Below are positions 7,065 to 51,660 of a DNA stretch of 64,000 bases, one piece after another. Origin of the DNA: Candidatus Thiodiazotropha endolucinida (GTDB lineage: Bacteria > Pseudomonadota > Gammaproteobacteria > Chromatiales > Chromatiaceae); contig NZ_MARB01000001.1 of assembly GCF_001715975.1 (NCBI RefSeq), positions 62,001-126,000 on the forward strand, written 5' to 3'. Positions within the stretch are counted from its first letter, which is position 1, and every line of letters begins with the position of its first letter. A program made the position numbers and the translations under genes. Under the pieces are notes generated by a model. The model searched no databases, was not told the DNA's origin, and saw only the letters and a program-made list of their open reading frames with translations.

Positions 7065-7068
7065 AGCG

Positions 7069-19961: not shown

Positions 19962-20048
<87 letters not shown>

Positions 20049-25792: not shown

Positions 25793-25977
25793 ACCATGCA
25801 TCATCTACGCATTGCTTAATAGACAAATGATTTTCGGGAGCAAATGTCTATTTTGCGACCTGAACGGACCAAACCGAGTTGTTACTCTGACGCTAAAAGT
25901 CCTGGGCAGTGACTCCGCCCCTGTTGCGGCAGGGCATCGTTTCTAGAAGCTGTCTTCCCGTTGCTGGTTAGGGTAAC

Positions 25978-27066
25978 TCAGCGGTCAGGGGCGTCTTCCA
26001 GTTCACGCACGAAAATCGCCTGATGGATATCACTGAGGCTAATGATCCCGGCCAGCCGGCGATCCTGGTCTACCACGGGGATGCGACGAAAACCGTGCAG
26101 GTCCATCTGTGCCGCCGCCTTCATGACGGGGGCGTCAATCTCGATGGAGATGACTGAGGGAGACATCAACTCACCAACACTCTTCTGCAGCACGCCACCA
26201 TATGAGGATTCCATCGCCTGGAAGTCCAGGGCCTGGGCAGGATCATCTAGAAACTGGGTATAGCCGGGCAGGAGGGCCTTGAGGATATCCTTCTCCGAGA
26301 TGACGCCCACAAGCCGGTTATTATCATCAACCACCGGCAGTCCACTGATCTTCTCGCTTGCGATGGTTTCCGCTACCGATCGAATGGTGTCATTCTCTGT
26401 AGTGGTATAGACACCGCGGTGCATGACATCATGCACCTGCATGGCGCCCTCCGCCGCCGAGGTCTGAGTTGATTGGGGAGTCCTATCGGGGATTTCCGGA
26501 AAGAAGTCCTTGCCCTCCCCGGGGACGATGATACGCTCCTCTTCGCTCACGGGCTCCGGTTTTGGCCATTGACCTGGTACCGGGTTCGGCTCAGTCAGAA
26601 AGCCAGAGGTCGCAGCCAGGTCCTTCATGACCGGGTTCCAGAAGAGATCATGACCTGGGACTTCACAGCTGAATTCGATGGGAATGCCGTTAGGGTCGTA
26701 GGAGTAGATCGACAAGAAACAGCCGTGATCGATAATATCCGAGCAGTGGAATCCTGCCGCATCCAGGCGGGACATTATCTCCCCGAGGGCATTCTTGTCG
26801 GCCACGCCGATGGCAATGTGGTCGAAGATGAACGATCCTTTCACCGGATCACCGTGTCGACGTGGTCGAACGGGTTCCACATCATGCCACTCAAAAAACG
26901 AGATGCGGTTATTGCCGGAGACGAGGAAGAAGTACTGACGGTAGCCGGGTGAGCCGTAGGCATAGACAAGGCGCATCCCCAGCAGATCTCGCCAGAACTT
27001 GACCGTCAGTTCGATGTCGTGGGTGGCAAAGGCGGTATGGTGAATGCCGGTGAACTCAGTTTTCAT
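25978..27066 (-). CDS. VOC (glyoxalase-fold) domain fused to a CBS-domain pair
   Basis: A 362-residue cytoplasmic protein. The N-terminal VOC domain (about 1-140) starts GIHHTAFATHDIELTVKFWR. Potential metal ligands are in HHTAF, RISFFEWHD, FDHIAIGV and GIPIEF (His, Glu, His, Glu), so it may be an active metal-dependent dioxygenase, lyase or isomerase. After a Pro/Glu-rich linker (about 155-205) comes a tandem CBS pair (about 212-355): DVMHRGVYTTTENDTIRSVA, GLPVVDDNNRLVGVISEKDI, RRIPVVDQDRRLAGIISLSD. CBS pairs usually sense adenosyl ligands, which suggests nucleotide control of the catalytic domain. The substrate is unknown. It directly follows a gene remnant. Confidence 0.85.
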   Translation of the reverse strand: MKTEFTGIHHTAFATHDIELTVKFWRDLLGMRLVYAYGSPGYRQYFFLVSGNNRISFFEWHDVEPVRPRRHGDPVKGSFIFDHIAIGVADKNALGEIMSRLDAAGFHCSDIIDHGCFLSIYSYDPNGIPIEFSCEVPGHDLFWNPVMKDLAATSGFLTEPNPVPGQWPKPEPVSEEERIIVPGEGKDFFPEIPDRTPQSTQTSAAEGAMQVHDVMHRGVYTTTENDTIRSVAETIASEKISGLPVVDDNNRLVGVISEKDILKALLPGYTQFLDDPAQALDFQAMESSYGGVLQKSVGELMSPSVISIEIDAPVMKAAAQMDLHGFRRIPVVDQDRRLAGIISLSDIHQAIFVRELEDAPDR

Positions 27067-27214
27067 ACGCTTGCTTGATGCTTGTAATCACTCTGGCTAA
27101 GACCCTATCCATCGCCTCTTCCCCCGTCAAGTCAACCGTGGAGGCGCTGCCGATTGGTCCATAGATACGAACAACAAGTTTGGGATCAGAGTAAAAACTA
27201 TCTGGCAGCCTATA
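27056..27214 (-). pseudogene. C-terminal remnant of an unidentified gene
   Basis: A 52-codon frame without a start codon reads like a genuine protein end: LPDSFYSDPKLVVRIYGPIG, then EEAMDRVLARVITSIKQAYE and a stop whose TGA overlaps the next gene's ATG. Upstream of the in-frame TGA at 27217-27215 no frame continues it. It appears to be the tail of a decayed gene once coupled to the VOC-CBS gene. The family is not recognised. Confidence 0.45.
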
Positions 27215-27376
27215 TCAGCAATTGCTAAAGGTCTAGTTTTAGCCGATTCCAGAATTTCACTTACCGTTAATTGAGATTTTATTCAGGCAATACGTCGTGA
27301 TAAGTAATCTGTAACTATGCTTTTATCCATGATGTTTATGATTCACGAAATTCATTCAATAAATCTGGTGCAAGGT

Positions 27377-28387
27377 TTATTGTGAGCCCGCATCTGTAAA
27401 GCCATCCGAAGTAATCATTTCCCCATCTTCGTCGATGATCACGGCATCGATATCCTCCAGACGATTGACCAGCGCCATACCTTTTTCCGCGCCAAGCACG
27501 AAGACGCTGGTGGATAGGGCATCGGTGCGGGTTGCGTTGGGGCCGATGATGGTGACGCTCTGCAGGGTGCCGGCGGAGCGCCCGGTTTTGGGGCTGATGA
27601 TGTGGTGGTAGCGTACGCCGTCACGTTCGAAGAAGCGTTCGTAATCACCTGAGGTGGAGATGGCGTTGTCGACAAGGGGTAGCATGGCGGCCATGCGTTC
27701 CTTGTCCCTCGGTGCCTGGATGCCGATGTGCCAGGGCCGGCCGCGATGGTCGCCCAGCAGGCGGCTGTCTCCACCGGCGCTGATCAGCGCATGCCCGATG
27801 CCTCTCTGTTGCAGCAGTTCGATGCCCCGGTCGACGGCGTAGCCTTTGGCGATGCCGCCGAGGTCGATGCGCACGCCTGGCTTTTCGAACGAGACCGTGC
27901 GGTTAGCCGCGGCCAGTCGAATATTGCGATAGTCGATCAGGGGCAGGGCAGTGTCGATCGTCGAATCGCTTGGCTTTACTCCCTTGCGATAGTCGTAACG
28001 GTGCCCAATGGAGGCGAAGGTGATATCGAAGGCGCCTTTGGTCAGCTCGGAGTATACGTGGGAGGTTTCGAGCAGGCGGTAAAACTCCTCCGAGATAACC
28101 ACAGGTTCGCTTGCGGCCATGCGGTTGACGAGGGCGAGCTCACTGTGCTCGATATAAGGGCTCAGTTTTTTGTCCAGGCGCCTAAACTCCTCCATGACGG
28201 CTTGAACCGCCGCCTCGCCTTGGCTTTTGTCCTGGTGCCATAACTGGACACTGACTTTGGTGCCCATGATCGCCTCTTCTCCACTGATCCATGCAGCGTG
28301 CAGCGGCTGAAACAGAGCGCAGCAGGTAACCGCTATCAACAGCAGGAGGTGATTATGAATACTCCACATCATTCTTCCGAATTTCAT
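27377..28387 (-). CDS. apbE: FAD:protein FMN transferase (ApbE), exported
   Basis: About 336 residues from ATG 28387. ApbE attaches FMN through a phosphoester to Thr/Ser of exported redox proteins. Sequence signs are the N-terminal hydrophobic segment (NHLLLLIAVTCCALFQPLHA), IMGTKVSVQLW, the FAD-binding VRIDLGGIAKGYAVDRGIE, ISAGGDSRLLG, and the C-terminal STSGDYERFFERDGVRYHHI with RTDALSTSVFVLG. Longer in-frame starts (28408, 28447) run into a dispersed repeat and are disfavoured; ATG 28369 behind GGAAG is also possible. It is last in the motor-like operon, 96 bases beyond the annotated end of the TonB-like gene region. No neighbour shows an obvious SGAT-type FMN site. Confidence 0.92.
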   Translation of the reverse strand: MKFGRMMWSIHNHLLLLIAVTCCALFQPLHAAWISGEEAIMGTKVSVQLWHQDKSQGEAAVQAVMEEFRRLDKKLSPYIEHSELALVNRMAASEPVVISEEFYRLLETSHVYSELTKGAFDITFASIGHRYDYRKGVKPSDSTIDTALPLIDYRNIRLAAANRTVSFEKPGVRIDLGGIAKGYAVDRGIELLQQRGIGHALISAGGDSRLLGDHRGRPWHIGIQAPRDKERMAAMLPLVDNAISTSGDYERFFERDGVRYHHIISPKTGRSAGTLQSVTIIGPNATRTDALSTSVFVLGAEKGMALVNRLEDIDAVIIDEDGEMITSDGFTDAGSQ

Positions 28388-28411
28388 CGCCGAAATATAT
28401 GTGCTCATTGA

Positions 28412-28436
28412 CGGTGATTGGCGTCCATTTGCGGCT
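28412..28436 (+). repeat. Dispersed intergenic repeat, copy 1
   Basis: GGTGATTGGCGTCCATTTGC and the following GGC match the copy at 56535-56559 at about 22 of 25 bases. It overlaps the open but probably untranslated 5' extension of apbE. Confidence 0.5.
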
Positions 28437-28542
28437 TGCTCTTTCACAGCGCATCAGCCATTCGACTAGGGGCTGTTGAGTAAACCGGAGATCATCAACC
28501 GCCTGCAAAGCGAAACGCTGTCACAGGTGGACAATCGATGCA

Positions 28543-29514
28543 TCAAGAGGGCAGAAAATCGATGGGATAGGAGACCACCGCGGTATCAACATCCTTGGCG
28601 GGAAACTTAAACAACTTGATACGTGACACCAATTTGCGTTCCAGTTTCTTATCGTTCAGCTCGGATGAAAGTATGACGCACCTGGTCACCTTTCCGGCAG
28701 GTGTTATCGTCAACTCCAACACTACCTTGCCACGCAGTGTGGGATCTTTCCGCAAGGCGCGATTGTAGAGTGCGTAGACAGCCCCTTTGTTCTGATCGAA
28801 GACCACCTGTATCTCTTCACGGGTACGGTTCCCTTTGAAATTCTTGCCTTTGCCCTTTCCGCGGGCCGCCGCTTTCGTCTCCTCGCTGATGGCGCTACTC
28901 TGCACCTCGGTCGTTCGGCGTCCTGAGAGTCCGGCGCCTCCCGTCTCACTGCTCAGGGCGGCGGTATTGATCCCGCCACTGCCACTGGCGACACCGGACG
29001 AGATGATCGAACGTTGGCTGCGGTATGTCTTCTTACCGGTAGTCGATAGTTTCTGTACACCCTTGACACTCGATTCGATCTGTTCTTCGCGCAGATCGGC
29101 CAATTGATCGGCGAAGGCCAGCAGGCCCGCGCTTGCCGCTTTCTTGCGCGCGTCCTCTTTAGTCGGCTTTTTCTTCGCCACCTGTTTTTCCGGCGGCTTT
29201 TGCGGTTCGGGTTTCTTCTTCTCTTCCGGCTTCTTCTTCTCCGGTTTTTTCTTCTCGGGTTCCGGCAGCTTCTTCTTGACGATCTTTTTCGGTTTCGGCG
29301 GCTCTTTCTTCTGCTCAAGGATCAGTCTCGCCAGCCGGGGCGGCAGGGTCTGTTTCTTGAAACGCTCTTTTTCCGGCAGCTCGATCATCGGCACGAGGGT
29401 GCCTGACAGCAGCGCGATGATCAGTACCACCAGGGCAATGATCTGAAATCGCCGCTCGTCGGCGGATGCCGTGTACCAGGGTAGATAGGTGGAGTGTCGA
29501 TAGGAGGCGCTCAC
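28543..29514 (-). CDS. TonB-like energy transducer with AgmX/PglI C-terminal domain
   Basis: A 323-residue inner-membrane protein. A single membrane anchor (FQIIALVVLIIALLSGTLVP, about 23-42) is followed by a Lys/Pro/Glu-rich periplasm-spanning rod (about 70-125). The linker contains TEVQSSAISEETKAAARGKG. The TonB-like C-terminal domain (about 228-323) holds EIQVVFDQNKGAVYALYNRA, GKVVLELTITPAGKVTRC and FPAKDVDTAVVSYPIDF, the AgmX/PglI type. It couples an ExbB/ExbD proton channel to the outer envelope. Its start overlaps the ExbD stop by 4 bases (ATGA), so translation is coupled. Confidence 0.88.
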   Translation of the reverse strand: MSASYRHSTYLPWYTASADERRFQIIALVVLIIALLSGTLVPMIELPEKERFKKQTLPPRLARLILEQKKEPPKPKKIVKKKLPEPEKKKPEKKKPEEKKKPEPQKPPEKQVAKKKPTKEDARKKAASAGLLAFADQLADLREEQIESSVKGVQKLSTTGKKTYRSQRSIISSGVASGSGGINTAALSSETGGAGLSGRRTTEVQSSAISEETKAAARGKGKGKNFKGNRTREEIQVVFDQNKGAVYALYNRALRKDPTLRGKVVLELTITPAGKVTRCVILSSELNDKKLERKLVSRIKLFKFPAKDVDTAVVSYPIDFLPS

Positions 29515-30023
29515 AACGGCTGTCCTCCATTGGGCTTTTCACTCTTTCTCAATACCGCCAGGGAGACATTGGGGTATTCAGATTCGGCACAGGTTGCCAT
29601 GACGCGCTTCAGCAGGGTGTAGGGGATCGTCTTCTCACCCATGATGGTGATCTTGCCCCTGAAGGGTTCCAGGCTGCTCGTTTTGGATCTCTCCGCGTGA
29701 CGCTGCAGTTCACTCTTCAAGGCGGGCAGCGTGGTCCCGCTGGGCAAGGGTTGCGCAAGGTCCATGACCCGGTGTCCCTGTACCAGGATCTCATTGTGAT
29801 TGACCATCACCACCAGGGTCTCGCGTGGTTTCAAGCTTGCCACCGACTCGGGCAGGCTCAATGCCTTTGCGTTGGGCAGCACTTGAACCTCACCGGAATT
29901 GACCAACAGGAAGAAGACCAGGATGGTAAAGATATCCATCAGGGAGACCAGGTTGAGTATGGCATGGCCTTTGTTTCGCCGATGATGACGATCCATGCGT
30001 TTTGCCCGGCGTGACATCTTCAT
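29511..30023 (-). CDS. ExbD/TolR-family protein (second of two)
   Basis: A 170-residue protein with a cytoplasmic basic start (MKMSRRAKRMDRHHRRNKGH) and one membrane helix in AILNLVSLMDIFTILVFFLL, where the Asp is the proton-carrying residue. A periplasmic TolR/ExbD domain follows. It forms a proton channel with the upstream ExbB-like protein. It is embedded between 4-base overlaps on both sides. Two different ExbD genes with one ExbB recall AglR/AglQ/AglS. Confidence 0.9.
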   Translation of the reverse strand: MKMSRRAKRMDRHHRRNKGHAILNLVSLMDIFTILVFFLLVNSGEVQVLPNAKALSLPESVASLKPRETLVVMVNHNEILVQGHRVMDLAQPLPSGTTLPALKSELQRHAERSKTSSLEPFRGKITIMGEKTIPYTLLKRVMATCAESEYPNVSLAVLRKSEKPNGGQPL

Positions 30024-30538
30024 GATGCGTTACCTTCATCCTGTTTCTGTGCGGCTACCGGTGGGGCATCGCCCAACGCAATATCGGGGAACAATTCATA
30101 CTGAACGAGGGTGCCGGCTTCCATGTTCTCTGTCATGCGCACGGCATCCATCACCTGCACCATGGTTTCGTATCTGGTATTCGGTTCCGACAGGATGAAG
30201 ATATTGCGTTTATCCTGAAAGCGGACCTTGATCTGCACCAGCAGCTCGTTCAAACCTTTCACGTCGTAACCATCCGGGGTGTTCTTCAGGCGTCTGATCA
30301 GGCCGCCTTCCCGATCCGCAACTTCGAGGCTGTCGGGGCGGATGATCACTTCCAACTGAAGCTCTTTGATCGCCTTCAGGGTGCCTTCACTGGCAGGGGG
30401 CAGATAGAGCTCGATAATGGAGAACCTGGAAAACGCGGCGGTGATCAACAAAAAGGGAATCAGGATCACCATCAGGTTGAGGAAGGCTGTAATGTTCAGC
30501 TCTTCCCCCTGTCGATGGCGCCTCAGCCGTTCTCTCAT
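30020..30538 (-). CDS. ExbD/TolR-family protein (first of two)
   Basis: A 172-residue protein with a basic cytoplasmic start (MRERLRRHRQGEELNITAFL), membrane helix NLMVILIPFLLITAAFSRFS and a periplasmic domain. At the usual Asp position the helix reads NITAFLNLMVILIPFL with Asn, so this copy may lack the proton-carrying carboxylate. That would make it a structural partner of the second ExbD, which has the Asp. It overlaps both neighbours by 4 bases. Confidence 0.88.
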   Translation of the reverse strand: MRERLRRHRQGEELNITAFLNLMVILIPFLLITAAFSRFSIIELYLPPASEGTLKAIKELQLEVIIRPDSLEVADREGGLIRRLKNTPDGYDVKGLNELLVQIKVRFQDKRNIFILSEPNTRYETMVQVMDAVRMTENMEAGTLVQYELFPDIALGDAPPVAAQKQDEGNAS

Positions 30539-31188
30539 GCCTTGCTCCGTGTGCTGAATGCCTGTTCGCTGAAGATGTTGAGAAATTTCACCGAGGCCAT
30601 CTCCAGGCTGTCGACGATGGCGGTGGTCTTACTCTGCAGCACGGCATACACCAGCAACAGGGGGATGGCCGCCATCAGCCCGAAGGCGGTGGTGTTCATG
30701 GCTACCGAGATACTGGCTGACAGCAGGTCCGCCTTCTCCGCGGGATCGGCGTTGGAGACGGCGGTAAAGGCCTGAATCAGACCTATGATGGTGCCCAACA
30801 GGCCGAGCAGGGTAGCGATGTTGGCTAGCGTGCTGAGATAGTGGGTGCGTTTTTCCATCCGTGGGATCGCCTCCATCAATCCCTCCTCCATGGCCACCTC
30901 GACATCGTCCCGGCGCCTGGCGGTACGTGCCCGTGCCAGGCCGTAAGTCAACATGGTGCCGATGGCGGTCTTGGATTTGTTGGCGGTCTCCATGGCGGAC
31001 TTGAAGTCGCCGTCATTGAGATGGGGCAGGACCTTTCTCCAGGTGCGCTTGTTGCTGCCGGTCTGTATGGTCAGAAAGACCCAGCGTTCGATGGCTATCG
31101 CCACGCCCCCTGCAAAGATCAGCAGGATAGGGTACATAAAGAGTCCGCCTTCCTGAAAAAATCGGATGATGGGGTCGATGAGCTCCAT
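30535..31188 (-). CDS. MotA/TolQ/ExbB proton-channel protein
   Basis: 217 residues with three membrane segments: GGLFMYPILLIFAGGVAIAI (about 15-34), LSTLANIATLLGLLGTIIGL (about 118-137) and ISVAMNTTAFGLMAAIPLLL (about 165-184). The large cytoplasmic loop and the TLLGLLGTIIGL / AFGLMAAIP motifs are diagnostic for the family. With the two ExbD proteins it should convert the proton gradient into movement of the TonB-like protein. It starts a tight four-gene block after a 130-base gap. Confidence 0.93.
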   Translation of the reverse strand: MELIDPIIRFFQEGGLFMYPILLIFAGGVAIAIERWVFLTIQTGSNKRTWRKVLPHLNDGDFKSAMETANKSKTAIGTMLTYGLARARTARRRDDVEVAMEEGLMEAIPRMEKRTHYLSTLANIATLLGLLGTIIGLIQAFTAVSNADPAEKADLLSASISVAMNTTAFGLMAAIPLLLVYAVLQSKTTAIVDSLEMASVKFLNIFSEQAFSTRSKA

Positions 31189-31318
31189 AGGATTCTCCGT
31201 TGTTTAACGCCTGAATATCGGTTTGCTGTAAATATATGCATCCAGTGGTGGATAAAAACACACATCTGATGCAAGAAATCGGGTTGTTTCAGTCATGCGG
31301 CACCGAGCAATAGATTCT

Positions 31319-31606
31319 TTACGGTTTTTCACTGAATGTCTGGTACCAATCGATCTGTCTGCGAAATACATCACGGTCCAGCGGAGCAAACAGCTCATCT
31401 CTGCGACCTGTTTCAGGGGGCATCATATTGGTGAGGCGCTTGGCCGAACGCCAGGGCACTACATAGAGTATATTGGGCGACTCTTTGTTGCCGAAGATGG
31501 CCGTGCCTTCCAGGTCGAGACGCTGTTCCGCATGCAGATTATGTGACGACAGCAACAACACAGTCATCGCTATCATCAACACGCTTTTAAGTTGCTTATT
31601 CATCAT
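31319..31606 (-). CDS. Small exported hypothetical protein of the motor-like operon
   Basis: 95 residues: signal peptide (LKSVLMIAMTVLLLSSHNLHA) and a short mature part ILYVVPWRSAKRL ... ELFAPLDRDVFRRQIDWYQT. No named domain is recognised. It sits 12 bases after the small TPR lipoprotein gene and before exbB, on the same strand, so it likely belongs to the same envelope complex. Confidence 0.78.
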   Translation of the reverse strand: MMNKQLKSVLMIAMTVLLLSSHNLHAEQRLDLEGTAIFGNKESPNILYVVPWRSAKRLTNMMPPETGRRDELFAPLDRDVFRRQIDWYQTFSEKP

Positions 31607-31618
31607 ATCCGCTTTCCG

Positions 31619-32266
31619 CTATTTTGATGACTTGATGCGTCGTTCGAGATCCAGAATCCAGCCGCCAATCTCCTTATCGTTCGTGTCGCCCAATGCCTGG
31701 CACCGCTTATAGTGCTGCAGCGCCAGTTCGGGTCTGCTCAGATAAAGATCGTAAAGGATTCCCAGATTACGGTGAGCGAGCAGGTAATCGGGTTCGATTT
31801 TCAGGGCCGTGCGATAGGTCTGCTCCGCCTGCTGAAACTTTCCCTGCATCCTGAGTGCGACACCCAGTTGGTTATGGGCGGGCAGGCTGTCCGGCTTCAA
31901 CTCAAGGGCTGTGGTAAATGACTCTGCGGCCTTGGCCGGTTCGCCTTCATTCAGCTGTATGATTCCCAGGTTGATGTGGGGACCGGGCAATCGGGGATTT
32001 TGATCGATCAATGCCTGCAGGTTCAGTTTCGCCTTGTCGATTTTATCCTGACGCATCAACGCAACAGCCGCATCGAATCTTTTTTGCAGTTGCGGGTCGG
32101 CGCTGCTCGACTGGTCAGCCCCAACCTCACTGATTGCAGGCCTGGCCTCATCTTTAGTTGCAGTGGTCGTGGTGCTGCAACCCGAAAGAAGCAGGAAAAT
32201 TGAGATCATACCTGAGACAAGACTGACGCCTGTCCAGTTGCGTGGATGGATACTAATTGATTGCAT
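31619..32266 (-). CDS. TPR lipoprotein (small)
   Basis: A 215-residue lipoprotein: signal ends in LLSGC, then a Ser/Thr linker and four TPR-like units, e.g. PHINLGIIQLNEGEPAKAAE, AHNQLGVALRMQGKFQQAEQ and AHRNLGILYDLYLSRPELAL. It is a periplasmic, outer- or inner-membrane-anchored scaffold. ATG 32266 is chosen because the signal peptide starts there; it overlaps the end of the 944-residue TPR gene by 14 bases. Confidence 0.85.
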   Translation of the reverse strand: MQSISIHPRNWTGVSLVSGMISIFLLLSGCSTTTTATKDEARPAISEVGADQSSSADPQLQKRFDAAVALMRQDKIDKAKLNLQALIDQNPRLPGPHINLGIIQLNEGEPAKAAESFTTALELKPDSLPAHNQLGVALRMQGKFQQAEQTYRTALKIEPDYLLAHRNLGILYDLYLSRPELALQHYKRCQALGDTNDKEIGGWILDLERRIKSSK

Positions 32267-41272: not shown

Positions 41273-41339
41273 GATTTCTTTACCGTTAGTCACACAGGCT
41301 GTTTGTTTGGGGCGTATTCCTGATCCATTAATCTTTATC

Positions 41340-43790: not shown

Positions 43791-43794
43791 TGAA

Positions 43795-44988
43795 TCAATC
43801 CCCTGCGCAATAGACCGCGGCTTCAGCGAATACGCGTTTCATGTTGTAATCGGTTTTGAAACTGCTGGTGATCTCCGCGATGCGGGTTCGGTCAGCGCTG
43901 TCCACAGGGGGACGCAGACAGACTGCCTGGAAGGCCTTGCTGACCTGGCATTCCGCAAAGGCATGGGAGTTGGCAAGTTCCTCGCCCATCGATTTGGCGC
44001 CTGCACCGGAGCCTGGCAGATTCGGGTCCCAGCCCAGCACCGAATTGGGGCCTTCCCGCCAGTAGTTATCCCAATCGTCATTCGTCGTGACATAGCCGTC
44101 CTTGAAGACGCTGCTGTTGATCAGGTACTTGGGTTGCACGCTATCGCGTGTGTAGGAGAGGAGGCCGGTTTCCGGATCATCGGTATATTCGTAGTTGTAA
44201 TAGGCATAGGCCTGTGCCAGGGGGGCCATGCCGGCATGACATCCCAGACAGTTGTTGAACCATACACGGCTGTCCCCTCCGGGGCTGCGAGTGGCGTCCT
44301 GGCGGATCCGGTCGGAGGCCCGTGTCGGGTCCTTGATCAATTCAAGATCCTTGCATAGATGATTGAGCATGGTGAAACGGAACATGGCTCGATTCGTACC
44401 ATCGATAAAGAACGCCCTTGCGGCCGCGCGGGTGGTGATGACACCTGCGGTTCCCTCCGGCGGAAGTCCGGTCACACTCGACTGGGTGGTTTGCTGCAGC
44501 TCATTCTTGAGGTTCAGGCCCAGGGTCTCCATCGCCTCATAGTGGTCGTTATTACTGTTGGAGTAGGCCGGTGCGTTACTGCCGATATAGAGGATGTCTG
44601 CAGAGAGCAACTGGTTGAAAGGAACATCATCCCTTACCATTCCGATCACAGTGGCGCTGTAGTCATTCAGCGGAGCAAAGGGTGTCATCTCCTCGTTGGT
44701 CCAGGGAGTGGCCCAGTTCTTCAGTGTGACATTGTAGAAATCGGGATGCTCTGTGGCGATCATGGCAGCTGCCAATGGATCACCGTTGGTTTCGATTTCA
44801 GTGACCATTTGTGCCAGGATTTGAGTACCTGGTGGTACCCCGGCTATCCGGTCGTGCATGCGTTTGGCCTGTTCACGCGGTCCGGCCGATGCGGTGACAG
44901 TGAAGAGAGATAGCAGAATCAGAATAAGAAACGGCCGTGGCTTTTTAGGAATCGAAATACTATCTCTGCATTGGCCCTGAAATGACAT
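43795..44988 (-). CDS. Exported protein with one CxxCH heme motif
   Basis: 397 residues: signal peptide (FLILILLSLFTVTASA, about 20-35). The rest is mostly unrecognised, with heme c motif NNCLGCHAG (Cys247 to His251) and a C-terminal helical region AFAECQVSKAFQAVCLRPPV. That last segment recalls the ends of planctomycete-type cytochrome c/DUF1588-1592 proteins, a weak similarity. It is first in a three-gene minus-strand set and divergent from the HzsA-related gene. Confidence 0.78.
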   Translation of the reverse strand: MSFQGQCRDSISIPKKPRPFLILILLSLFTVTASAGPREQAKRMHDRIAGVPPGTQILAQMVTEIETNGDPLAAAMIATEHPDFYNVTLKNWATPWTNEEMTPFAPLNDYSATVIGMVRDDVPFNQLLSADILYIGSNAPAYSNSNNDHYEAMETLGLNLKNELQQTTQSSVTGLPPEGTAGVITTRAAARAFFIDGTNRAMFRFTMLNHLCKDLELIKDPTRASDRIRQDATRSPGGDSRVWFNNCLGCHAGMAPLAQAYAYYNYEYTDDPETGLLSYTRDSVQPKYLINSSVFKDGYVTTNDDWDNYWREGPNSVLGWDPNLPGSGAGAKSMGEELANSHAFAECQVSKAFQAVCLRPPVDSADRTRIAEITSSFKTDYNMKRVFAEAAVYCAGD

Positions 44989-45308
44989 GATGAACGTGCC
45001 CCTAAATCCACCTTTAGACTAATCCCGAAGTGTCCTTCGAGTCTTTGTTTGCCGTCTCTTTCCTTCTATATCTTTCCCTGTTTTTGTCAATCCAAAGTGG
45101 CGAATACGTGACTTCTGTTTTTACAGTGTGTGAACTTGCGCACTGATTGGTGACTTCGATGAGGTAGACTCTCAAGTCCATGATTTTATTAGTCGATAGC
45201 ACGAGTCAATGCTTGTTTTGAATGGTGTTCGATGACATATCGATGGTTAACCACAGATGGGTTATCAGGCACGGTTCGATCAGATTTCCCGGAGGAAGCT
45301 AGCTACAG
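44989..45308. other. Divergent promoter region between the two heme-protein sets
   Basis: 320 bases between divergent genes, AT-rich around 45040-45110. GGAGGAA (45292) serves the plus-strand gene. No specific operator was recognised. Confidence 0.4.
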
Positions 45309-47948
45309 ATGAAACGGGTTGCCGCCATGAAGACGTTGCCAGGCCTATGCGCTGCCTTGTTCATCCTCGGTTTGCAGGGATGCGGCAGTGGCAGCAGCCA
45401 GGAGCAGGATCCGGTTGTCGTTGATTACCCTGTCGCCTATGTGAAGCGGCCGATTACTGAGACAACCAATACGGACATCCGTGTCAGTCAGGTCAGCGAG
45501 GCGGGCGGAGACCTCTATCTGAAGGATTACGCCGCAGGGGGAGCCGAGGAGGTCAACCTGACAGGATCGGTAACCGAGGGTGAAGGTGATGTGCGTGATG
45601 TCAGCGCCTCATTCGATGGTAGCAAGCTGCTGTTCTCTCTCAGGCTGCCCCTTATCGAGGATGCTGAGCCTGAGGATCAGCCGACATGGAATATCTGGGA
45701 GTACGACATTCCAAGTCAATCATTGAGACGTGTCATTGTCTCGGATATCACTGCCGAAGATGGTCACGACCGCTTCCCGCAATATCTGCCTGATGGACGT
45801 ATCGTTTTCTCTTCCACCAGGCAACGGCTTGCCAAGGCGCGGCTGCTGGACGAGGGCAAACCCCAGTATCTTGCCATGGAGGGATCGGTTGATGAGCCGG
45901 CCATGGTTCTCCACGTCATGAACAGTGATGGTACCGATATTACCCAGATCTCGTTCAATCGTAGCCATGACTTCTCTCCCAGCGTCCTTGCCGATGGTCA
46001 GATTGTGTTCAGCCGTTGGAACAATGCGGACGGCAACGATGCCATCCATCTCTATCGCATGAATCCGGATGGCACCGAGTTGGAGCTGTTGTATGGATTG
46101 AACAGCCATGATTCGGGAACCGGGGGCGGCACGGTGCAGTTCTTGCGCCCGATCGAGATGCCGGATGGTCGTATTCTGGCGTTGCTGTTACCCTTCGACG
46201 GTACCGATGAGGGTGGCGACCTAGTCTACATAGACAGCGTCAACTATGTGGACAATGATCAGCCCACATGGGAAAACACGGGCCTGACAGGCCCGGCACA
46301 GACCCAGGCGACCATACTTCAGGTCACCACCGATGGCAGTCTGTCGAGCGGTGGACAGTTGCGCAGCGCCTACCCGCTGTTTGACGGAACGGATCGGATG
46401 GTGATCAGCTGGAGCCAGTGCCGTGCGCTGGAGGATGATATTATCGTACCCTGCACCGAGGAGCGTCTTGCCAATCCCGATACCGAAGCAGCGCCGCCGC
46501 TCTACAGCCTTTATATCTATGATGGCGATACGCAGACCCAACAACCGATCGTCAAACCGCAAGAGGGTGTCATCTACACCGATGCGGTGATCGCTGTGGC
46601 GCGTGCCGTTCCGACGATCCGACATGACAAAACAGCGGGTATCGATCTTGACCCAACCCTGGTGTCGGACAAGGCCGGCCTGCTGCATATACGCAGTGTC
46701 TACGATCTGGACGGCGTGGATGCGGCCGATCCCGATATACCAACCCTGGCCGATCCCGCCCAGACCCGGTCGGATCAACGTCCGGCAAGGTTTCTGCGCC
46801 TCATCAAGCAGGTGACAATCCCCGATGATGATGTGCTCGAGTTTTCAAACAGCGCGTTTGGCGCGACCGCGCAGTTCGGTATGCGTGAGGTGATCGGCTA
46901 TGCACCGATCGAACCCGATGGTTCCGTGCAGGTGAAGGTGCCGGCGAATGTTCCCGTCAGTTTCGCCATACTCGATGCGAATGGACGACGCATCGATCAA
47001 CCTCATGGCTTCTGGCTCCAGTTCAGACCGGGAGAGGTCGTGAGTTGCGGTGGCTGCCATGCTGCTGACAACCCGCTTCCCCATGGCAGACTGAGTGCCG
47101 CGCCACCCAGTGTCTATAACGGCAGTACAGGTAGCGGTCTGCCATTCCCGAATGCCAATCCGGAGCTGTGGAGCGATTTCGGAGAGACCATGGCGCAGAC
47201 ACGCAACCGTCTGCAATGCAGAGCCGGCGCTTGTGATCCAACCTTGGACCTGCTGTTCACCGATGTCTGGACGGATCCGGCCATGAGAGAGCCTGATACG
47301 GAATTCAGCTATCGGTATGCGGACCTGGAGACGGAGTCGCCCCTGAGTGACGCTGCCTGTAGCGGCAGCTGGAATGTGTTCTGTCGTTCCATCATACATT
47401 ACGAACAGCATATCCATCCGTTATGGTCGCTGCCACGACCGGTATTCGATGCCTCCAATACCCAGGTCGACGATCATACCTGTACGCTCTGCCATGACAC
47501 GGATGACAATGGGGTGACCGTGTTACCGGATGCCCAGCTGGATCTGAGTGATGGTCCATCCGAAGATGAGCCGGACCACTTCGCAGCCTATCGGGAGTTG
47601 CTTGTACCGGATAATCTGCAGCAGGTCGTGGACGGTATTCTGGTTGATATTCTGGTGCCGCAAACGGATGAAAACGGCCAACCGCTGTATGAAACCGATG
47701 ACAACGGTGAGCTGGTCCTGGATGGATCGGGCAATCCTGTTCCACTGCCTGATGCACCGGTGCCGGTGCCGGGAGGAGCCTCGATGGAGGCGGGCTCGGC
47801 GAATAATGGCCGCTTCCTTGGGCTGTTTGATCCCGGTGGCGTGCATGCGGGTTATCTGAGTGACGCGGAGAAAAGACTGATAGCTGAATGGCTCGATATA
47901 GGCGCACAATATTACAATGACCCTTTCATGGCACCACTGGATGAGTGA
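45309..47948 (+). CDS. HzsA-related di-heme lipoprotein with PD40 beta-propeller
   Basis: 879 residues. Lipobox LQGC (Cys25). An N-terminal TolB/PD40-type beta-propeller (about 60-420; FPQYLPDGRIVFSSTRQR, HDFSPSVLADGQIVFSRWNN) is followed by the middle domain and two heme c motifs, CGGCH (580-584) and CTLCH (725-729). The order propeller, middle domain, two hemes is that of the hydrazine synthase alpha subunit and its many non-anammox relatives. Hydrazine synthesis is not implied because no HzsB or HzsC lies nearby. The stop overlaps the next gene's GTG start by 4 bases. Confidence 0.83.
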   Translation: MKRVAAMKTLPGLCAALFILGLQGCGSGSSQEQDPVVVDYPVAYVKRPITETTNTDIRVSQVSEAGGDLYLKDYAAGGAEEVNLTGSVTEGEGDVRDVSASFDGSKLLFSLRLPLIEDAEPEDQPTWNIWEYDIPSQSLRRVIVSDITAEDGHDRFPQYLPDGRIVFSSTRQRLAKARLLDEGKPQYLAMEGSVDEPAMVLHVMNSDGTDITQISFNRSHDFSPSVLADGQIVFSRWNNADGNDAIHLYRMNPDGTELELLYGLNSHDSGTGGGTVQFLRPIEMPDGRILALLLPFDGTDEGGDLVYIDSVNYVDNDQPTWENTGLTGPAQTQATILQVTTDGSLSSGGQLRSAYPLFDGTDRMVISWSQCRALEDDIIVPCTEERLANPDTEAAPPLYSLYIYDGDTQTQQPIVKPQEGVIYTDAVIAVARAVPTIRHDKTAGIDLDPTLVSDKAGLLHIRSVYDLDGVDAADPDIPTLADPAQTRSDQRPARFLRLIKQVTIPDDDVLEFSNSAFGATAQFGMREVIGYAPIEPDGSVQVKVPANVPVSFAILDANGRRIDQPHGFWLQFRPGEVVSCGGCHAADNPLPHGRLSAAPPSVYNGSTGSGLPFPNANPELWSDFGETMAQTRNRLQCRAGACDPTLDLLFTDVWTDPAMREPDTEFSYRYADLETESPLSDAACSGSWNVFCRSIIHYEQHIHPLWSLPRPVFDASNTQVDDHTCTLCHDTDDNGVTVLPDAQLDLSDGPSEDEPDHFAAYRELLVPDNLQQVVDGILVDILVPQTDENGQPLYETDDNGELVLDGSGNPVPLPDAPVPVPGGASMEAGSANNGRFLGLFDPGGVHAGYLSDAEKRLIAEWLDIGAQYYNDPFMAPLDE

Positions 47949-48706
47949 GTTTGAGACTTCTTAGGTTAAAGCGGTATCTGTGGACGAGCTGGCTGTTGAT
48001 CTGGCTGATACCTGCAACCAGTGCGGGAGAAGAGGAGTATCAACGGGTTCAGGTGACAGCCCCCTATATTGAAATGCACACCGGGCCGGGGCGTTCCTAT
48101 CCCATCGTATATGTCGTGGAAAGGATGGAGTGGGTCGAGGTTCGAAAGCGTCGTACGGATTGGTTTCAGGTTTACACGCGTCGCGGTCGTTCTGGATGGG
48201 TCAGCCTGGAGCAGATGCGCCAGACTCAAACCGCGGATGGTGAGCGGCTTAAGCTGGTCGGCTATACACAGGATGATTTCAGGAACCGGGAATGGGAATT
48301 CGGTTTTTATGGCGGCGACATGGAGGGCGCCACACTGCTTGGTTTATATGGTGGTTACTCGTTCAATGAAAATCTCTCCGCTGAGCTCAGTCTGTCTCAA
48401 GCCTTGGGTGATTTCTCAAGCGAATACCTGTTTGATGTCAACCTGCTGTCTCAGCCCTTTCCCGAATGGACCTATAGTCCGTTTTTCACATTGGGAGGGG
48501 GTGTGATTCGCACCGAGCCCAAGTCGACATTGGTTCAGGCTGAGGATCGTACCGACACTACGGCCCATGTCGGCGCCGGTCTGCGTGTCTATCTGACGCG
48601 GCGTTTTTTTCTGCGCGGAGAGTTTCGCCACTACACCGCATTCACCAGTCGTGAAGACAATGAGGAATTTGACCAGTGGAAAATCGGACTCGGTTTCTTT
48701 TTCTGA
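47945..48706 (+). CDS. SH3-domain protein with outer-membrane beta-barrel
   Basis: 253 residues from GTG. A signal peptide precedes a bacterial SH3 domain (about 33-95: APYIEMHTGPGRSYPIVYVV, WFQVYTRRGRSGWVS), then an 8-stranded-type beta-barrel (about 115-253) ending in the outer-membrane sorting strand WKIGLGFFF. It is probably an outer-membrane protein that binds peptidoglycan or a partner through SH3. It is coupled to the HzsA-related gene (4-base overlap) and overlaps the next barrel gene by 31 bases. Confidence 0.82.
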   Translation: MSLRLLRLKRYLWTSWLLIWLIPATSAGEEEYQRVQVTAPYIEMHTGPGRSYPIVYVVERMEWVEVRKRRTDWFQVYTRRGRSGWVSLEQMRQTQTADGERLKLVGYTQDDFRNREWEFGFYGGDMEGATLLGLYGGYSFNENLSAELSLSQALGDFSSEYLFDVNLLSQPFPEWTYSPFFTLGGGVIRTEPKSTLVQAEDRTDTTAHVGAGLRVYLTRRFFLRGEFRHYTAFTSREDNEEFDQWKIGLGFFF

Positions 48707-49338
48707 GCATCGCGTCACTTCTGACGGCCCTGATAATGCCGCCGTGTATAGCCGCTGAGCCTATCGGAGAGGGGCTGCGTGAGGATCTGCTAATTGAGCC
48801 TGAGATTGCACGCAGGGAGATTGTGGAACCCGAGATCGATACAGAGGATTTCGAGATTGGGATCTATGCCGGTTTGATGAACATAGAGGATTTCGGGACC
48901 AGCGGCGTCTTCGGCGCCCGTTTCGCCTATCACCTTACGGAATCGATTTTCGTTGAGGCGGCGATCGGCACGACCGAGGCCAAGGAGACGAGTTTCGAAC
49001 AGCTGGGCGGCGATGTTCAGCTGCTCGCCGACGATGACCGTGACTTCACCTATTACAACCTCTCCGCCGGATACAATCTGCTTCCCGGAGAGGTGTTTCT
49101 GGGCGGTAAGTATGCCTATAACAGCCAGTTCTATCTGATCGCCGGAATCGGCAGCACCCGCTTTGCCGGAGACGACGAGTTTACGGTCAATGTCGGTGCG
49201 GGGTATCGACTTTTGATCAATGACTGGCTGACCCTGCATCTTGATGTCAGGGATCACATGTTCGAGTCAGACCTGCTGGGGGAGACGAAGACAATTCACA
49301 ACTTCGAGCTACACGGTGGCCTGACATACTTCTTTTGA
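48676..49338 (+). CDS. Outer-membrane beta-barrel protein
   Basis: 220 residues from GTG: signal peptide (RFLFLSIASLLTALIMPPCIA), acidic linker, then a beta-barrel (about 58-220) with alternating strands (FEIGIYAGLMNIEDFGTSGV, YYNLSAGYNLLPGEVFLGGK) and terminal strand FELHGGLTYFF. It resembles the beta-barrel family common in myxobacteria and some gammaproteobacteria (from memory). The 31-base overlap with the preceding barrel gene indicates co-translation. Confidence 0.82.
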   Translation: MENRTRFLFLSIASLLTALIMPPCIAAEPIGEGLREDLLIEPEIARREIVEPEIDTEDFEIGIYAGLMNIEDFGTSGVFGARFAYHLTESIFVEAAIGTTEAKETSFEQLGGDVQLLADDDRDFTYYNLSAGYNLLPGEVFLGGKYAYNSQFYLIAGIGSTRFAGDDEFTVNVGAGYRLLINDWLTLHLDVRDHMFESDLLGETKTIHNFELHGGLTYFF

Positions 49339-49348
49339 GGGAATAGCG

Positions 49349-49864
49349 ATGTTGAGTGAACGCCTAATTCAATTCCGATTGCATCAGTTTATCGTAGCCG
49401 GTGTATTGCTATTGGCTTGCGGATATACCGTTGCAGCCAATCAACCATCCATGGCGCCTGATTTCACGCTCAAGAGTCGAGAGGGTGTGAATATAAAGCT
49501 GAGTGAACTGCGAGGACAGGTAGTGATGGTCAATTTCTGGGCCTCCTGGTGCGGTCCCTGTCGCCAGGAGATGCCACTGTTGCAGCAGTTGTTCGATCGC
49601 TACCAATCCCTGGGTTTTTCACTGCTGGGCGTGAATGTGGATGAAGACAGGGCCGCAGCTGATAAGATGCTGAGTGACCTCCCGGTGAGTTTTCCCATTC
49701 TCTATGACGACCGTAGCAAAGTGAGTAAACAGTATCAGGTCAAAGCGATGCCAAGCACCTTCATGGTCGACAGGGATGGACGGATACGTTATCTCCATAA
49801 GGGATATAAACCCGGATATGAGGAAGAGTACCAGCAACAGATTCGTCAGCTGTTGCGTGAGTAA
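49349..49864 (+). CDS. TlpA/ResA-type thioredoxin-fold protein
   Basis: 171 residues, membrane-anchored or secreted (signal about 12-30). PDFTLKSREGVNIKLSELRG and VNFWASWCGPCRQEMP, with redox pair Cys68/Cys71, then KAMPSTFMVDRDGRI with the cis-Pro. Periplasmic disulfide reductases of this kind keep heme-binding CxxCH or other cysteines reduced, which fits the nearby c-type heme genes and the Cys-rich DUF4266 protein. It is 10 bases after the barrel gene. Confidence 0.9.
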   Translation: MLSERLIQFRLHQFIVAGVLLLACGYTVAANQPSMAPDFTLKSREGVNIKLSELRGQVVMVNFWASWCGPCRQEMPLLQQLFDRYQSLGFSLLGVNVDEDRAAADKMLSDLPVSFPILYDDRSKVSKQYQVKAMPSTFMVDRDGRIRYLHKGYKPGYEEEYQQQIRQLLRE

Positions 49865-49885
49865 CCATTGATTGAAGTGAAAACG

Positions 49886-50113
49886 ATGCTATACAGAATC
49901 TGCCGGTTTTTGCTCTCTCTATCCATTCTCGCCAGTGCAGGGTGCAGTATCGAGCCCTGGGTACAACCCTATGAGCGTGCCCATCTGGCCGACCCGATCA
50001 TGAGCTTTGAGCGCGACCCTGTTGCGAGCGCCTACCGAGACCATGTCTATCAGACCCGAGAGGCGGCACGTGGCGCCGAGGGCGGTGGCGGAGGGGGATG
50101 TGGCTGTAACTAA
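49886..50113 (+). CDS. DUF4266 lipoprotein
   Basis: 75 residues from ATG. Lipobox LASAGC is followed by the signature VQPYERAHLADPIMSFERDP, then AYRDHVYQTREAARGAEGGG and the Gly/Cys tail GGCGCN. DUF4266 proteins are small lipoproteins of unknown role, often next to DUF3570 and TlpA-like genes. An in-frame TTG at 49868 would add six residues. The last bases overlap the proposed DUF3570 start. Confidence 0.88.
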   Translation: MLYRICRFLLSLSILASAGCSIEPWVQPYERAHLADPIMSFERDPVASAYRDHVYQTREAARGAEGGGGGGCGCN

Positions 50114-51296
50114 TCCCACGACCATGCGAGGCGCTATTTCGATTGTTTCATGGCCGATATCCAAGCAAGGCCTTTTCTGTCTGCAAATAGTGCTGCTGTT
50201 AACGTGCAGTACGGGATTGCAGGCTACTGTTCTTCCGGAAGACAGGGCGGATATCATGTATCACCGTTACGATGGCGGTGGTGTCGAAGTGGATGGGCCA
50301 TCGATCCTGGTGCGCAAATCCTTTTCCGGCAATGTGTCGCTGAATGCCAACTACTATATCGATTCCATCTCAAGCGCCTCGGTGGATGTGGTCAGCATGG
50401 CGTCGCCCTATACCGAGGAACGTACGGAAACCAGCCTGGCGCTGGATTATCTGCACAACAAGACCTTGATGAGCCTGGCGCTGACCAGCAGTGATGAGAG
50501 CGACTATCAAGCCGAGACCGGCAGCTTCTCCATCAGTCACGACATGTTCGGCGACCTCACAACCGTCTCACTCGGGTATGCGGTGGGCAATGACGATATC
50601 AGCCGCAATGGAGACAGGGATTTCGGAGAGTCCCTGAAGCGGCAGAATTACCGTATCGGTGTCAGCCAGATTTTGACCAAAGAGAGCATTCTCGACATCG
50701 ATTGGGAGACGATCACCGACGAGGGCTACCTGAACAACCCCTATCGCTCCTATCGATTTCTCGATCCACTCAGTGAGAACGGATATGGCTTTCAACCCGA
50801 GAGGTATCCGAATACACGCACCAGTAACGCCCTGGCCTTGCGTCTGAAATATTATCTTCCCTACCGTGCCGCCTTGAGCGGTGAATACCGCTACTTCAAC
50901 GACACCTGGGGTATCAGTGCCAACAACGTGGAATTCGCCTATACCCACCCCCTGGAGAAAGACTGGGTGGTCGATGTCCGTTATCGCTACTACACTCAGA
51001 ACGCGGCCGATTTCTACAGCGATCTCTTCTCACGTGTGAACGAGCAGAATTTTCTGGCACGGGACAAGGAGTTGAGCACGTTTCAGAGCCACACGATCGG
51101 CTTTACCGTGAGTTATGATTTTCATCCTGAGAGGTGGCAGTTTATAGACAATGGCAGCCTCAATTTCTCCCTCGACCTGATTCGGTTCGAGTATGACGAT
51201 TTTCGCGATATCACCCGCGGCGGTGTCGCCGGTGAGGAGCCCCTCTACTCATTTACAGCCAATGTGATCAAGGCCTATCTCTCGGTCTGGTATTGA
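50100..51296 (+). CDS. DUF3570 outer-membrane protein
   Basis: About 398 residues. A signal segment (LFCLQIVLLLTCSTGLQA) precedes the DUF3570 opening LPEDRADIMYHRYDGGGVEV and DGPSILVRKSFSGNVSLNAN. Many amphipathic strands follow, ending in AYLSVWY; a large beta-barrel is likely. The GTG at 50100 has GAGG five bases upstream and overlaps the DUF4266 stop; ATG 50124 is the alternative. It is last in the plus-strand run that begins with the HzsA-related gene. Confidence 0.88.
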   Translation: MAVTNPTTMRGAISIVSWPISKQGLFCLQIVLLLTCSTGLQATVLPEDRADIMYHRYDGGGVEVDGPSILVRKSFSGNVSLNANYYIDSISSASVDVVSMASPYTEERTETSLALDYLHNKTLMSLALTSSDESDYQAETGSFSISHDMFGDLTTVSLGYAVGNDDISRNGDRDFGESLKRQNYRIGVSQILTKESILDIDWETITDEGYLNNPYRSYRFLDPLSENGYGFQPERYPNTRTSNALALRLKYYLPYRAALSGEYRYFNDTWGISANNVEFAYTHPLEKDWVVDVRYRYYTQNAADFYSDLFSRVNEQNFLARDKELSTFQSHTIGFTVSYDFHPERWQFIDNGSLNFSLDLIRFEYDDFRDITRGGVAGEEPLYSFTANVIKAYLSVWY

Positions 51297-51660
51297 CCGT
51301 TTATTTGCCGTTGAATCCCGTGCTCCTGTGTGAGTATTCATTCATTGCCGTGGATTTCGCCTGGGTTCCACACAGGAACGTGAGGAGAAGACAAGTTTGA
51401 ATACCGGCCATGCAATCCAGCCGTGACAGTTGGAACCCTACCCCACCATAAAGCGCTGATTTTGTTTGCTAACCAGGTGACTTGCAATGCCTGGCAGCAG
51501 CTTTGCTGCACCAGTACGCAGTTGATAAGATGGAATTATTCCAATACATCACTTAAGCCTGCTTATTTTCGCCTTCTGTGTCATAATCGGCCGCTGATTT
51601 TATCAGCGGGCATGATCTGCCTGACGGATACTGTTTGGCCCGAATGAGAGGTTAGTTGAA
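51297..51660. other. Leader region of yajC-secD-secF
   Basis: 364 bases without a gene. It holds an extended -10 promoter (51579-51587). A perfect 8-bp hairpin CCGCTGAT-TTT-ATCAGCGG (51591-51609) would form at the very 5' end of the message. GAGAGG precedes yajC. No remnant of mobile DNA was seen. Confidence 0.45.
51579..51587 (+). promoter_or_regulatory. Extended -10 promoter of the sec genes
   Basis: TGTCATAAT combines the TG-N extension with -10 CATAAT, 74 bases before yajC. The -35 is weak, as is normal for extended -10 promoters. It fits the need for an own promoter now that tgt is far away. Confidence 0.45.

What the first reader, a model, noticed from the sequence alone, without database searches (positions are those of the whole stretch)
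25793..51660. About 25.9 kb of accessory genes splits the usual queA-tgt-yajC-secD-secF block
In most gammaproteobacteria these five genes are adjacent. Here tgt and yajC are separated by a motor-like operon, a heme-protein cluster, beta-barrel genes, lgt and a gene remnant, and yajC has its own extended -10 promoter. Several inserted genes share one theme: proton channel, periplasmic scaffold, outer-membrane barrels, thioredoxin, flavin transferase, surface heme lipoproteins. This suggests one trans-envelope system that couples the proton gradient or redox chemistry to the cell surface. No integrase, IS or flanking repeat was seen, so how it got there is unknown.
Basis: partly seen in the sequence, partly recalled or inferred. 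Interest (0 to 1): 0.75.

Follow-up and report, generated by a model that had tools for sequence, protein, structure and literature searches.

The report
Proton-motor and surface-heme gene module
In a clam-symbiont bacterium, a 25.9 kb stretch that splits a normally intact housekeeping gene block is mostly one conserved gene module that pairs a proton-driven motor of a known but unexplained kind with a set of predicted surface heme, redox and lectin-like proteins.

Summary
Observation confirmed: 25,868 bases lie between tgt (ends 25792) and yajC (starts 51661). The genus is Candidatus Thiodiazotropha. The tgt-secD gap is 24-30 kb in 12 of 12 genus genomes with both genes on one contig, and under 1 kb in 18 of 20 other family genomes. 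About 22 kb of the insert is one module: a motor operon resembling the gammaproteobacterial 'core complex' related to Myxococcus Agl-Glt, plus a nine-gene block (DUF3570, DUF4266, thioredoxin, two barrels, a hydrazine-synthase-alpha-like diheme lipoprotein, a heme protein, a LamG diheme lipoprotein, a Tat-exported phosphatase-fold protein), with ApbE. They co-occur: 47 of 49 block-positive gammaproteobacterial genomes carry the motor marker, against 40 of 320 block-negative ones. lgt, DUF3187 and the CBS-glyoxalase gene are later additions; the yajC promoter predates the insertion. In a sister genus the module sits inverted among the same neighbouring genes, so it probably moved locally. That the motor acts on the surface proteins is inferred. 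A new variant of a known kind; it gives a motor of unknown function candidate partners.

The parts
27377..28447 (-). apbE, FAD:protein FMN transferase, next to the motor operon
   Evidence: PF02424 E 2.1e-84; next to gltG in 10 of 10 genus regions and in G040 and G050, elsewhere in the module in G054 and G071
28543..29514 (-). GltG-type, TonB-like transducer with AgmX/PglI C-terminal domain
   Evidence: NF033768 E 4.7e-21 over its cut-off; NF033760 GltG E 5.2e-16 below its cut-off
29511..30023 (-). ExbD/TolR-type subunit 2, keeps the membrane Asp (D30)
   Evidence: PF02472; Asp in 75 of 76 homologues, gap in one
30020..30538 (-). ExbD/TolR-type subunit 1, Asn (N21) at the place of the membrane Asp
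   Evidence: PF02472; Asn or Ser in 76 of 78 homologues, Asp in 2
30535..31188 (-). ExbB/MotA/TolQ-type channel subunit (AglR-like)
   Evidence: PF01618 E 4.3e-28
31319..31606 (-). conserved small protein of 95 aa with signal-like N-terminus
   Evidence: tblastn E below 1e-7 in all 21 fetched regions in which exbB was found, and in G054; no Pfam match
31619..32329 (-). TPR protein with lipobox-like N-terminus (tprC)
   Evidence: TPR models; lipobox-like pattern in 64 of 79 homologues of over 85% coverage
32253..35087 (-). large TPR protein with lipobox-like N-terminus (tprB), used as motor marker
   Evidence: TPR, YbgF and YfiO models; found in 50 of 50 block-bearing genomes searched
35084..36940 (-). 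TPR protein (tprA)
   Evidence: TPR models; colinear in relatives
36931..37458 (-). lp175, first gene of the motor operon, no known family
   Evidence: no Pfam match; same place in core loci
39701..41272 (-). p582: Tat-exported protein, alkaline-phosphatase-superfamily fold (start inferred from the alignment; the longest ORF begins at 41449)
41340..43790 (-). lipoprotein-like protein with two CxxCH motifs and a Laminin_G_3 lectin-like domain
   Evidence: PF13385 E 1.1e-21; two CxxCH in 83 of 84 homologues
43795..44988 (-). p397: protein with one CxxCH motif and no recognised fold
   Evidence: one CxxCH in 85 of 85 homologues; model pLDDT 85, no PDB match at E 0.001 or better
45309..47948 (+). 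hydrazine-synthase-alpha-like lipoprotein-like protein with two CxxCH motifs and propeller repeats
   Evidence: PF18582 E 1.1e-16; PDB 5c2v E 1.6e-11; two CxxCH in 82 of 82 homologues
47945..48706 (+). SH3-domain plus outer-membrane barrel protein
   Evidence: PF13505; TIGR04565 below its cut-off
48676..49338 (+). outer-membrane barrel protein of TIGR04565 (OMP_myx_plus)
   Evidence: 169.5 bits against a cut-off of 60
49349..49864 (+). ResA/TlpA-like thioredoxin
   Evidence: PF00578; NF002854 E 5.3e-36, below its cut-off
49868..50113 (+). DUF4266 small protein with lipobox-like N-terminus, ending in CGCN
   Evidence: PF14086 E 1.3e-23; sequence
50007..51296 (+). DUF3570 protein, possible ApbE substrate (true start probably downstream of the ORF start)
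   Evidence: PF12094 E 3e-42; relaxed flavinylation motif in 78 of 80 homologues
25978..27066 (-). glyoxalase plus CBS protein; passenger, not part of the module
   Evidence: no match in the 10 fetched genus regions
37718..38803 (+). DUF3187; genus-level addition, not part of the conserved module
   Evidence: 10 of 10 genus regions, no module-bearing region of another genus
38751..39581 (-). lgt (prolipoprotein diacylglyceryl transferase), second copy; genus-level addition
   Evidence: another copy elsewhere in the genome; 8 of 10 genus regions
51577..51587 (+). extended -10 element of yajC, older than the insertion
   Evidence: read; conserved in intact tgt-yajC spacers

Best explanation
The insert is a conserved two-part module that came to lie between tgt and yajC in the ancestor of Ca. 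Thiodiazotropha by a local rearrangement. Part one is a proton-driven motor of the Agl-Glt core type: ExbB and two ExbD in the inner membrane, a TonB-like GltG-type transducer, and TPR proteins reaching towards the outer membrane. Part two is the outer-envelope apparatus it most likely acts on: outer-membrane barrels, two diheme lipoproteins (one hydrazine-synthase-alpha-like, one with a LamG lectin-like domain), a single-heme protein and a Tat-exported phosphatase-fold protein. ApbE, DUF3570, DUF4266 and the thioredoxin add a flavin and thiol redox relay. Proposed mechanism: proton flow through ExbB/ExbD drives GltG and the TPR proteins, which move or cycle an outer-membrane complex that binds a glycan-like ligand through LamG and carries out redox chemistry at the surface. 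Shown: the gene set, its order, its co-occurrence, five CxxCH heme motifs, the conserved membrane Asp in one ExbD and a relaxed flavinylation motif. Inferred: physical contact of motor and block, surface location, ligand, flavinylation, electron flow and the kind of movement.
For: All nine block genes in 66 of 80 named loci, the best 80 by p582 similarity. Motor beside the block in 59 of 80: 26 on the p582 side, 33 on the DUF3570 side. tprB in 50 of 50 block-bearing genomes searched. In 369 gammaproteobacterial genomes, 47 of 49 with p582 have tprB against 40 of 320 without; by family 28 of 30. In 25 of the 47 the two lie within 25 kb on one contig. Among 93 relatives, 25 of 28 genomes with the HZS-like gene have tprB against 10 of 65 without. 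Heme-motif numbers are nearly constant. ApbE lies next to the motor while DUF3570 lies in the block, also in loci where motor plus apbE sit apart from the block (L184, L187, L192, L202, L208, L211). GltG-type and OMP_myx_plus hits. In Myxococcus the AglRQS motor moves surface-directed complexes (PMC3858216, passages).
Against: No expression, interaction or localisation data. The motor marker occurs without p582 in 40 genomes; beside five such cores (L073-L077) the ORFs of 170 aa or more show CxxCH motifs in only one (L077), with no lipobox. G091, a complete genome, has p397, LamG, p582 and a shortened HZS-like frame but no tprB. Within the genus, G011 and G014 have the HZS-like gene but no tprB match (both assemblies have 400 or more contigs). 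In 19 of the 47 genomes motor and block are on different contigs and in 3 they are 55 kb or more apart. In G054 (the record of L097) and L092, exbB, exbD and gltG were not found at the site. The published motif [S/T]GA[S/T] is in 35 of 91 DUF3570 rows, the form with Asp in 29 of 80, and the window's protein lacks it. LamG as glycan binder rests on the domain name. Genomes are related, so the Fisher value is not a clean probability, and p582 and tprB stand in for whole gene sets there.
Confidence: 0.55

Rival explanations
1. Two separate machines, co-located because both are envelope systems expressed together: a stand-alone core motor with its own unknown task, and a DUF3570-cytochrome redox pathway that needs no motor.
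For: 40 of 87 genomes with tprB lack p582; ApbE, DUF3570, DUF4266 and thioredoxin clusters are described without mention of a motor in the passages seen (PMC8238504); G091 has part of the block without tprB.
Against: 47 of 49 p582-bearing genomes keep tprB, in 28 of 30 families, and the motor is found beside either flank of the block, which suggests repeated selection for linkage and not one frozen arrangement.
Confidence: 0.25
2. TonB-like import or export: the motor energises passage of a substrate through the barrels, for example iron or a glycan reduced at the surface by the flavin and heme proteins.
For: The GltG-type protein carries a TonB-like C-terminus (TIGR01352 over its cut-off; PF03544 below its cut-off); 25 DUF3570 clusters carry a VIT1 iron transporter (PMC8238504, passage).
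Against: No TonB-dependent receptor or uptake gene recognised by Pfam in the interval ORFs scanned.
Confidence: 0.15
3. A gliding or surface-motility machine, as in Myxococcus.
For: GltG-domain and OMP_myx_plus matches; same motor class.
Against: Luciano et al. hold it unlikely that the core drives motility on its own, and gliding is undocumented in most carriers (PMC3169522, section 12). Heme and flavin proteins are no known gliding parts (recalled).
Confidence: 0.08
4. A foreign genomic island inserted at tgt-yajC by a mobile element.
For: The junction beside tgt is variable among congeners.
Against: No integrase or transposase among the 20 ORFs scanned, no shared boundary repeat over 10 bases; in the sister genus the module lies among neighbours of the same region; tprB copies of Thiodiazotropha, G044, G040, G054/Sedimenticola and G050 form one supported group.
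Confidence: 0.05

Closest known systems
Gammaproteobacterial core complex related to Agl-Glt/Nfs (Group B genes gltC, D, E, G and aglR, Q, S; Luciano et al. 2011, PMC3169522)
   Same: One ExbB-type and two ExbD-type subunits, a GltG-type protein and TPR proteins in one gene cluster of gammaproteobacteria. The paper mentions one additional gene; lp175 or the 95-aa gene may be it (not tested).
   Different: Coupled to a nine-gene heme, redox and lectin-like block that the sections read do not describe. One ExbD lacks the membrane Asp in 76 of 78 homologues, whereas a review ascribes a conserved Asp to both AglQ and AglS of Myxococcus (PMC9389320, passage).
ApbE-DUF3570-DUF4266-thioredoxin systems (Meheust et al. 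2021, PMC8238504)
   Same: All four gene families present; DUF4266 ends in a CXC motif (CGCN).
   Different: No DsbD recognised in the interval, published flavinylation motif relaxed (SSAS in the window), and linked to a motor and CxxCH proteins.
Hydrazine synthase alpha subunit (PDB 5c2v)
   Same: Propeller-type repeats, middle domain with CxxCH, second C-terminal CxxCH.
   Different: Lipobox-like N-terminus, only 46 bits to the solved chain, found in gammaproteobacteria; a hydrazine synthase is not claimed.
Planctomycete-specific cytochrome (PSCyt) genes with LamG/PSD domains and unknown neighbours (PMC5615132)
   Same: CxxCH protein with Laminin_G_3 beside a protein of unknown function; weak PSD2 hit on p397.
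   Different: No PSCyt or PSD model reached its cut-off; profile comparison of p582 with DUF1501 is not significant (probability 2.9%). That DUF1501 is such a neighbour is recalled.

Membership tests
Gammaproteobacterial core complex (Group B) | ExbB/TolQ/MotA-type channel subunit plus two ExbD/TolR-type subunits in one operon | tested here: met
   PF01618 and twice PF02472, adjacent genes
Gammaproteobacterial core complex (Group B) | GltG-type transducer | tested here: met
   AgmX/PglI C-terminal domain NF033768 over its cut-off; full-length GltG model NF033760 at E 5.2e-16 below its cut-off
Gammaproteobacterial core complex (Group B) | GltD, GltE and GltC orthologues | tested here: inconclusive
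   Three TPR proteins stand in the operon; tprA and tprB hit no Glt model in NCBIfam, tprC was not scanned there, and no Myxococcus sequence was compared
Gammaproteobacterial core complex (Group B) | Phylogenetic grouping with the Myxococcus genes | not tested
   no Myxococcus sequences were fetched
Myxococcus-type AglRQS motor | Membrane Asp in both ExbD-type subunits, as a review states for AglQ and AglS | tested here: not met
   ExbD2 Asp in 75 of 76, ExbD1 Asp in only 2 of 78; statement of the review
Myxococcus gliding machinery (Group A genes) | GltA, B, F, H, I, J, K present | tested here: inconclusive
   OMP_myx_plus barrel at 48676-49338; GltJ model only below its cut-off, on the GltG-type protein; no other Glt model among 22 interval ORFs scanned in NCBIfam; whether models exist for all Group A genes was not checked
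ApbE-DUF3570-DUF4266-thioredoxin system | the four genes in one cluster | tested here: met
   in the window ApbE is about 21 kb from the other three but within the same module
ApbE-DUF3570-DUF4266-thioredoxin system | [S/T]GA[S/T] flavinylation motif in DUF3570 | tested here: not met
   window has SSAS; 35 of 91 rows have the published motif; relaxed form D..[ST][GS]A[ST] (relaxation recalled) in 78 of 80
Hydrazine synthase | alpha-subunit middle domain | tested here: met
   PF18582 E 1.1e-16; 5c2v E 1.6e-11
Hydrazine synthase | beta and gamma subunits alongside and the active-site heme ligands | tested here: inconclusive
   no such subunit recognised by Pfam in the interval; ligands not compared residue by residue
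Alkaline-phosphatase superfamily (p582) | shared fold | tested here: met
DUF1501 | profile similarity | tested here: inconclusive
   hhalign probability 2.9%, P 0.016, colinear GGYDYH/GGWDTH stretch
Genomic island or mobile element | integrase/transposase or boundary repeats | tested here: not met
   none among 20 ORFs; no boundary repeat over 10 bases; the only tRNA gene of the window (19962-20048) is not at the boundary

The most novel reading that the evidence does not exclude
A surface redox machine worked by a proton motor: an asymmetric motor, in which only one of the two ExbD-type subunits carries the proton-binding Asp (suggesting an obligate ExbD1-ExbD2 heterodimer), mechanically moves or cycles a five-heme, flavin-containing, lectin-bearing outer-membrane complex. 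This would be the function of about half of the gammaproteobacterial core complexes, left unexplained since 2011.
Probability: 0.22. Interest if true: 0.85.

Novelty: new variant of a known kind. Interest (0 to 1): 0.6.

Why it matters
The gammaproteobacterial core complex was described in 2011 as a probable functional complex of unknown function (PMC3169522, section 12). This work names nine candidate partner genes that go with it in about half of the carriers surveyed (p582 in 47 of 87 genomes with tprB), including cultured genera such as Alteromonas, Shewanella, Pseudoalteromonas and Microbulbifer. That makes the question testable with simple deletions. The Asp/Asn split between the two ExbD subunits bears on another open point, whether AglQ and AglS form homo- or heterodimers (PMC9389320, passage). 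The case also shows a conserved gene block broken by a module while the downstream promoter stayed intact.

Tried and rejected

Of the 80, 14 lack at least one block gene in the stretch held, and 21 were not shown to have an adjacent motor: 10 were not followed up (genus members or short contigs) and for 11 the motor was found only on another contig or not next to the block (for L102 the two contigs share a 127-base end match). One search covered 50 of the 80. Homologue counts use frames with over 85% coverage of the profile, those over 60%. The profiles were trained on the regions, genus regions included. One search used 47 of the 49 p582-positive genomes for distances; the own genome is one of the 369.


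Full report
What is there. The window holds queA, tgt, yajC, secD and secF with 25,868 bases between tgt and yajC. The interval reads, from tgt to yajC: a glyoxalase-CBS gene, apbE, the leftward motor operon (GltG-type, two ExbD, ExbB, a 95-aa gene, three TPR genes, lp175), DUF3187, lgt, the leftward set p582, LamG protein, p397, and the rightward set HZS-alpha-like protein, SH3-barrel, barrel, thioredoxin, DUF4266, DUF3570.

Which organism. Contigs of unnamed same-genus genomes have the lengths of named records of Candidatus Thiodiazotropha (for example 1,221,007 and 654,519 bases), known from lucinid clams (recalled; several titles name clam hosts). In the tprB tree G040 sits beside an endosymbiont of the tubeworm Lamellibrachia.

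How old the split is. tgt-secD gaps of 24.2-30.1 kb occur in 12 of 12 genus genomes with both genes on one contig. In 18 of 20 other family genomes the two are less than 0.9 kb apart; two exceptions have them 216 kb and 3.3 Mb apart. Nine of the ten remaining genus genomes show DUF3570 less than 1 kb upstream of secD; G011 is uninformative. In G044, whose tprB is the nearest outgroup of the genus, tgt is followed by a convergent cytochrome-like frame before the contig ends, so its state is open.

What belongs together. In G040, G050, G054 and G071, which keep tgt and secD adjacent, these genes stand in one block on another contig than tgt, without lgt, DUF3187 or the CBS gene; G054 lacks tprC, exbB, both exbD and gltG there. 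With profiles built from the regions, 66 of 80 named gammaproteobacterial loci hold all nine block genes, and 59 of 80 show the motor beside the block, on either flank. 50 of 50 searched block-bearing genomes have tprB. In an even draw of 369 gammaproteobacterial genomes, 49 have p582 and 87 have tprB; 47 have both (Fisher p about 1e-32, not corrected for relatedness; 28 of 30 families agree). The exceptions are G058, where p582 is a fragment at a contig end, and G091, a complete genome with a shortened HZS-like frame. Among 93 relatives the HZS-like gene is in 28, of which 25 have tprB; the three without are G091 and the fragmented genus genomes G011 and G014. The motor marker also exists without p582 in 40 genomes.

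How it got there. In G040 the module lies, inverted, between homologues of window genes 1074-2057 (class II tRNA-synthetase-like, EpmA-type by recall) and 6153-9679 (phosphatidylserine decarboxylase to aminotransferase), whereas in the window these genes stand about 15-24 kb upstream of tgt. G032, in which neither the HZS-like gene nor tprB was found, has the same genes within 13 kb of tgt on one contig. A pair of overlapping inversions, or an inverted transposition, from that site into the tgt-yajC spacer accounts for position and orientation; this is inference. The reverse order of events is not excluded but would need exact restoration of a normal spacer in G040. The yajC extended -10 is present in 7 of 9 spacers of intact genera, so yajC kept its own promoter.

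Mechanism. By analogy with Myxococcus, where the AglRQS motor works on surface-directed complexes (PMC3858216, passages; PMC3169522), I propose that the motor works the heme, redox and lectin-like outer-membrane set. The gene unit is well supported; the physical coupling is not shown. Parts of the set are known separately: the core complex (PMC3169522) and ApbE-DUF3570-DUF4266-Trx (PMC8238504). The searches named under Tried and rejected gave no paper that joins them.

Judgement. The novelty lies in the recurring pairing and in the asymmetric ExbD pair, not in the split of queA-tgt-yajC-secDF itself, which is a lineage-specific rearrangement.

Noticed in passing
window 30020-30538 and 29511-30023: The two ExbD-type subunits differ at the membrane Asp: Asn or Ser in 76 of 78 ExbD1, Asp in 75 of 76 ExbD2, in block-linked and other cores alike.
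   Followed up: partly
window 31319-31606 (minus strand): Conserved 95-aa gene without Pfam match in the motor operon.
   Followed up: partly
window 38751-39581: Second lgt, seen here only in this genus; the other copy is at G000:C8 (334-aa frame, 30-39% identity). It may serve the many lipoproteins nearby or be a passenger.
   Followed up: partly
spacer between tgt and apbE; L044 (G019), L053 (G013), window 25978-27066: Variable spot in the genus: different genes per species, including what look by recall like a TIR-type and a catalase-peroxidase gene in G019.
   Followed up: no
L049-L050, L051-L052, L055-L056, L057-L058 (G008, G002, G010, G016): About 5 kb of extra DNA between p582 and lgt in four genus genomes; its ORFs were listed for G008 and G002 only.
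   Followed up: no
L234 (G014), L069 (G091): HZS-like gene split over two frames in G014 (2.6 Mb genome, no tprB found) and matched only over residues 18-446 in a 630-aa frame in G091 (complete genome, no tprB): possible decay.
   Followed up: no
L186, L210: A second kind of locus with motor operon, three barrel-type frames and another HZS-like protein, in genomes that also carry the nine-gene block elsewhere.
   Followed up: no
L063-L064 (G054, same record as L097), L092: Sedimenticola-like modules without exbB, exbD and gltG at the site; G054 has another tprB on a different contig.
   Followed up: no
L161: A record titled Klebsiella pneumoniae MAG carries the block, otherwise seen here in environmental gammaproteobacteria; probably a mislabelled bin.
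   Followed up: no
L233 (G044): tgt is followed by a convergent frame with cytochrome-like CxxCH motifs instead of yajC, near a contig end.
   Followed up: partly
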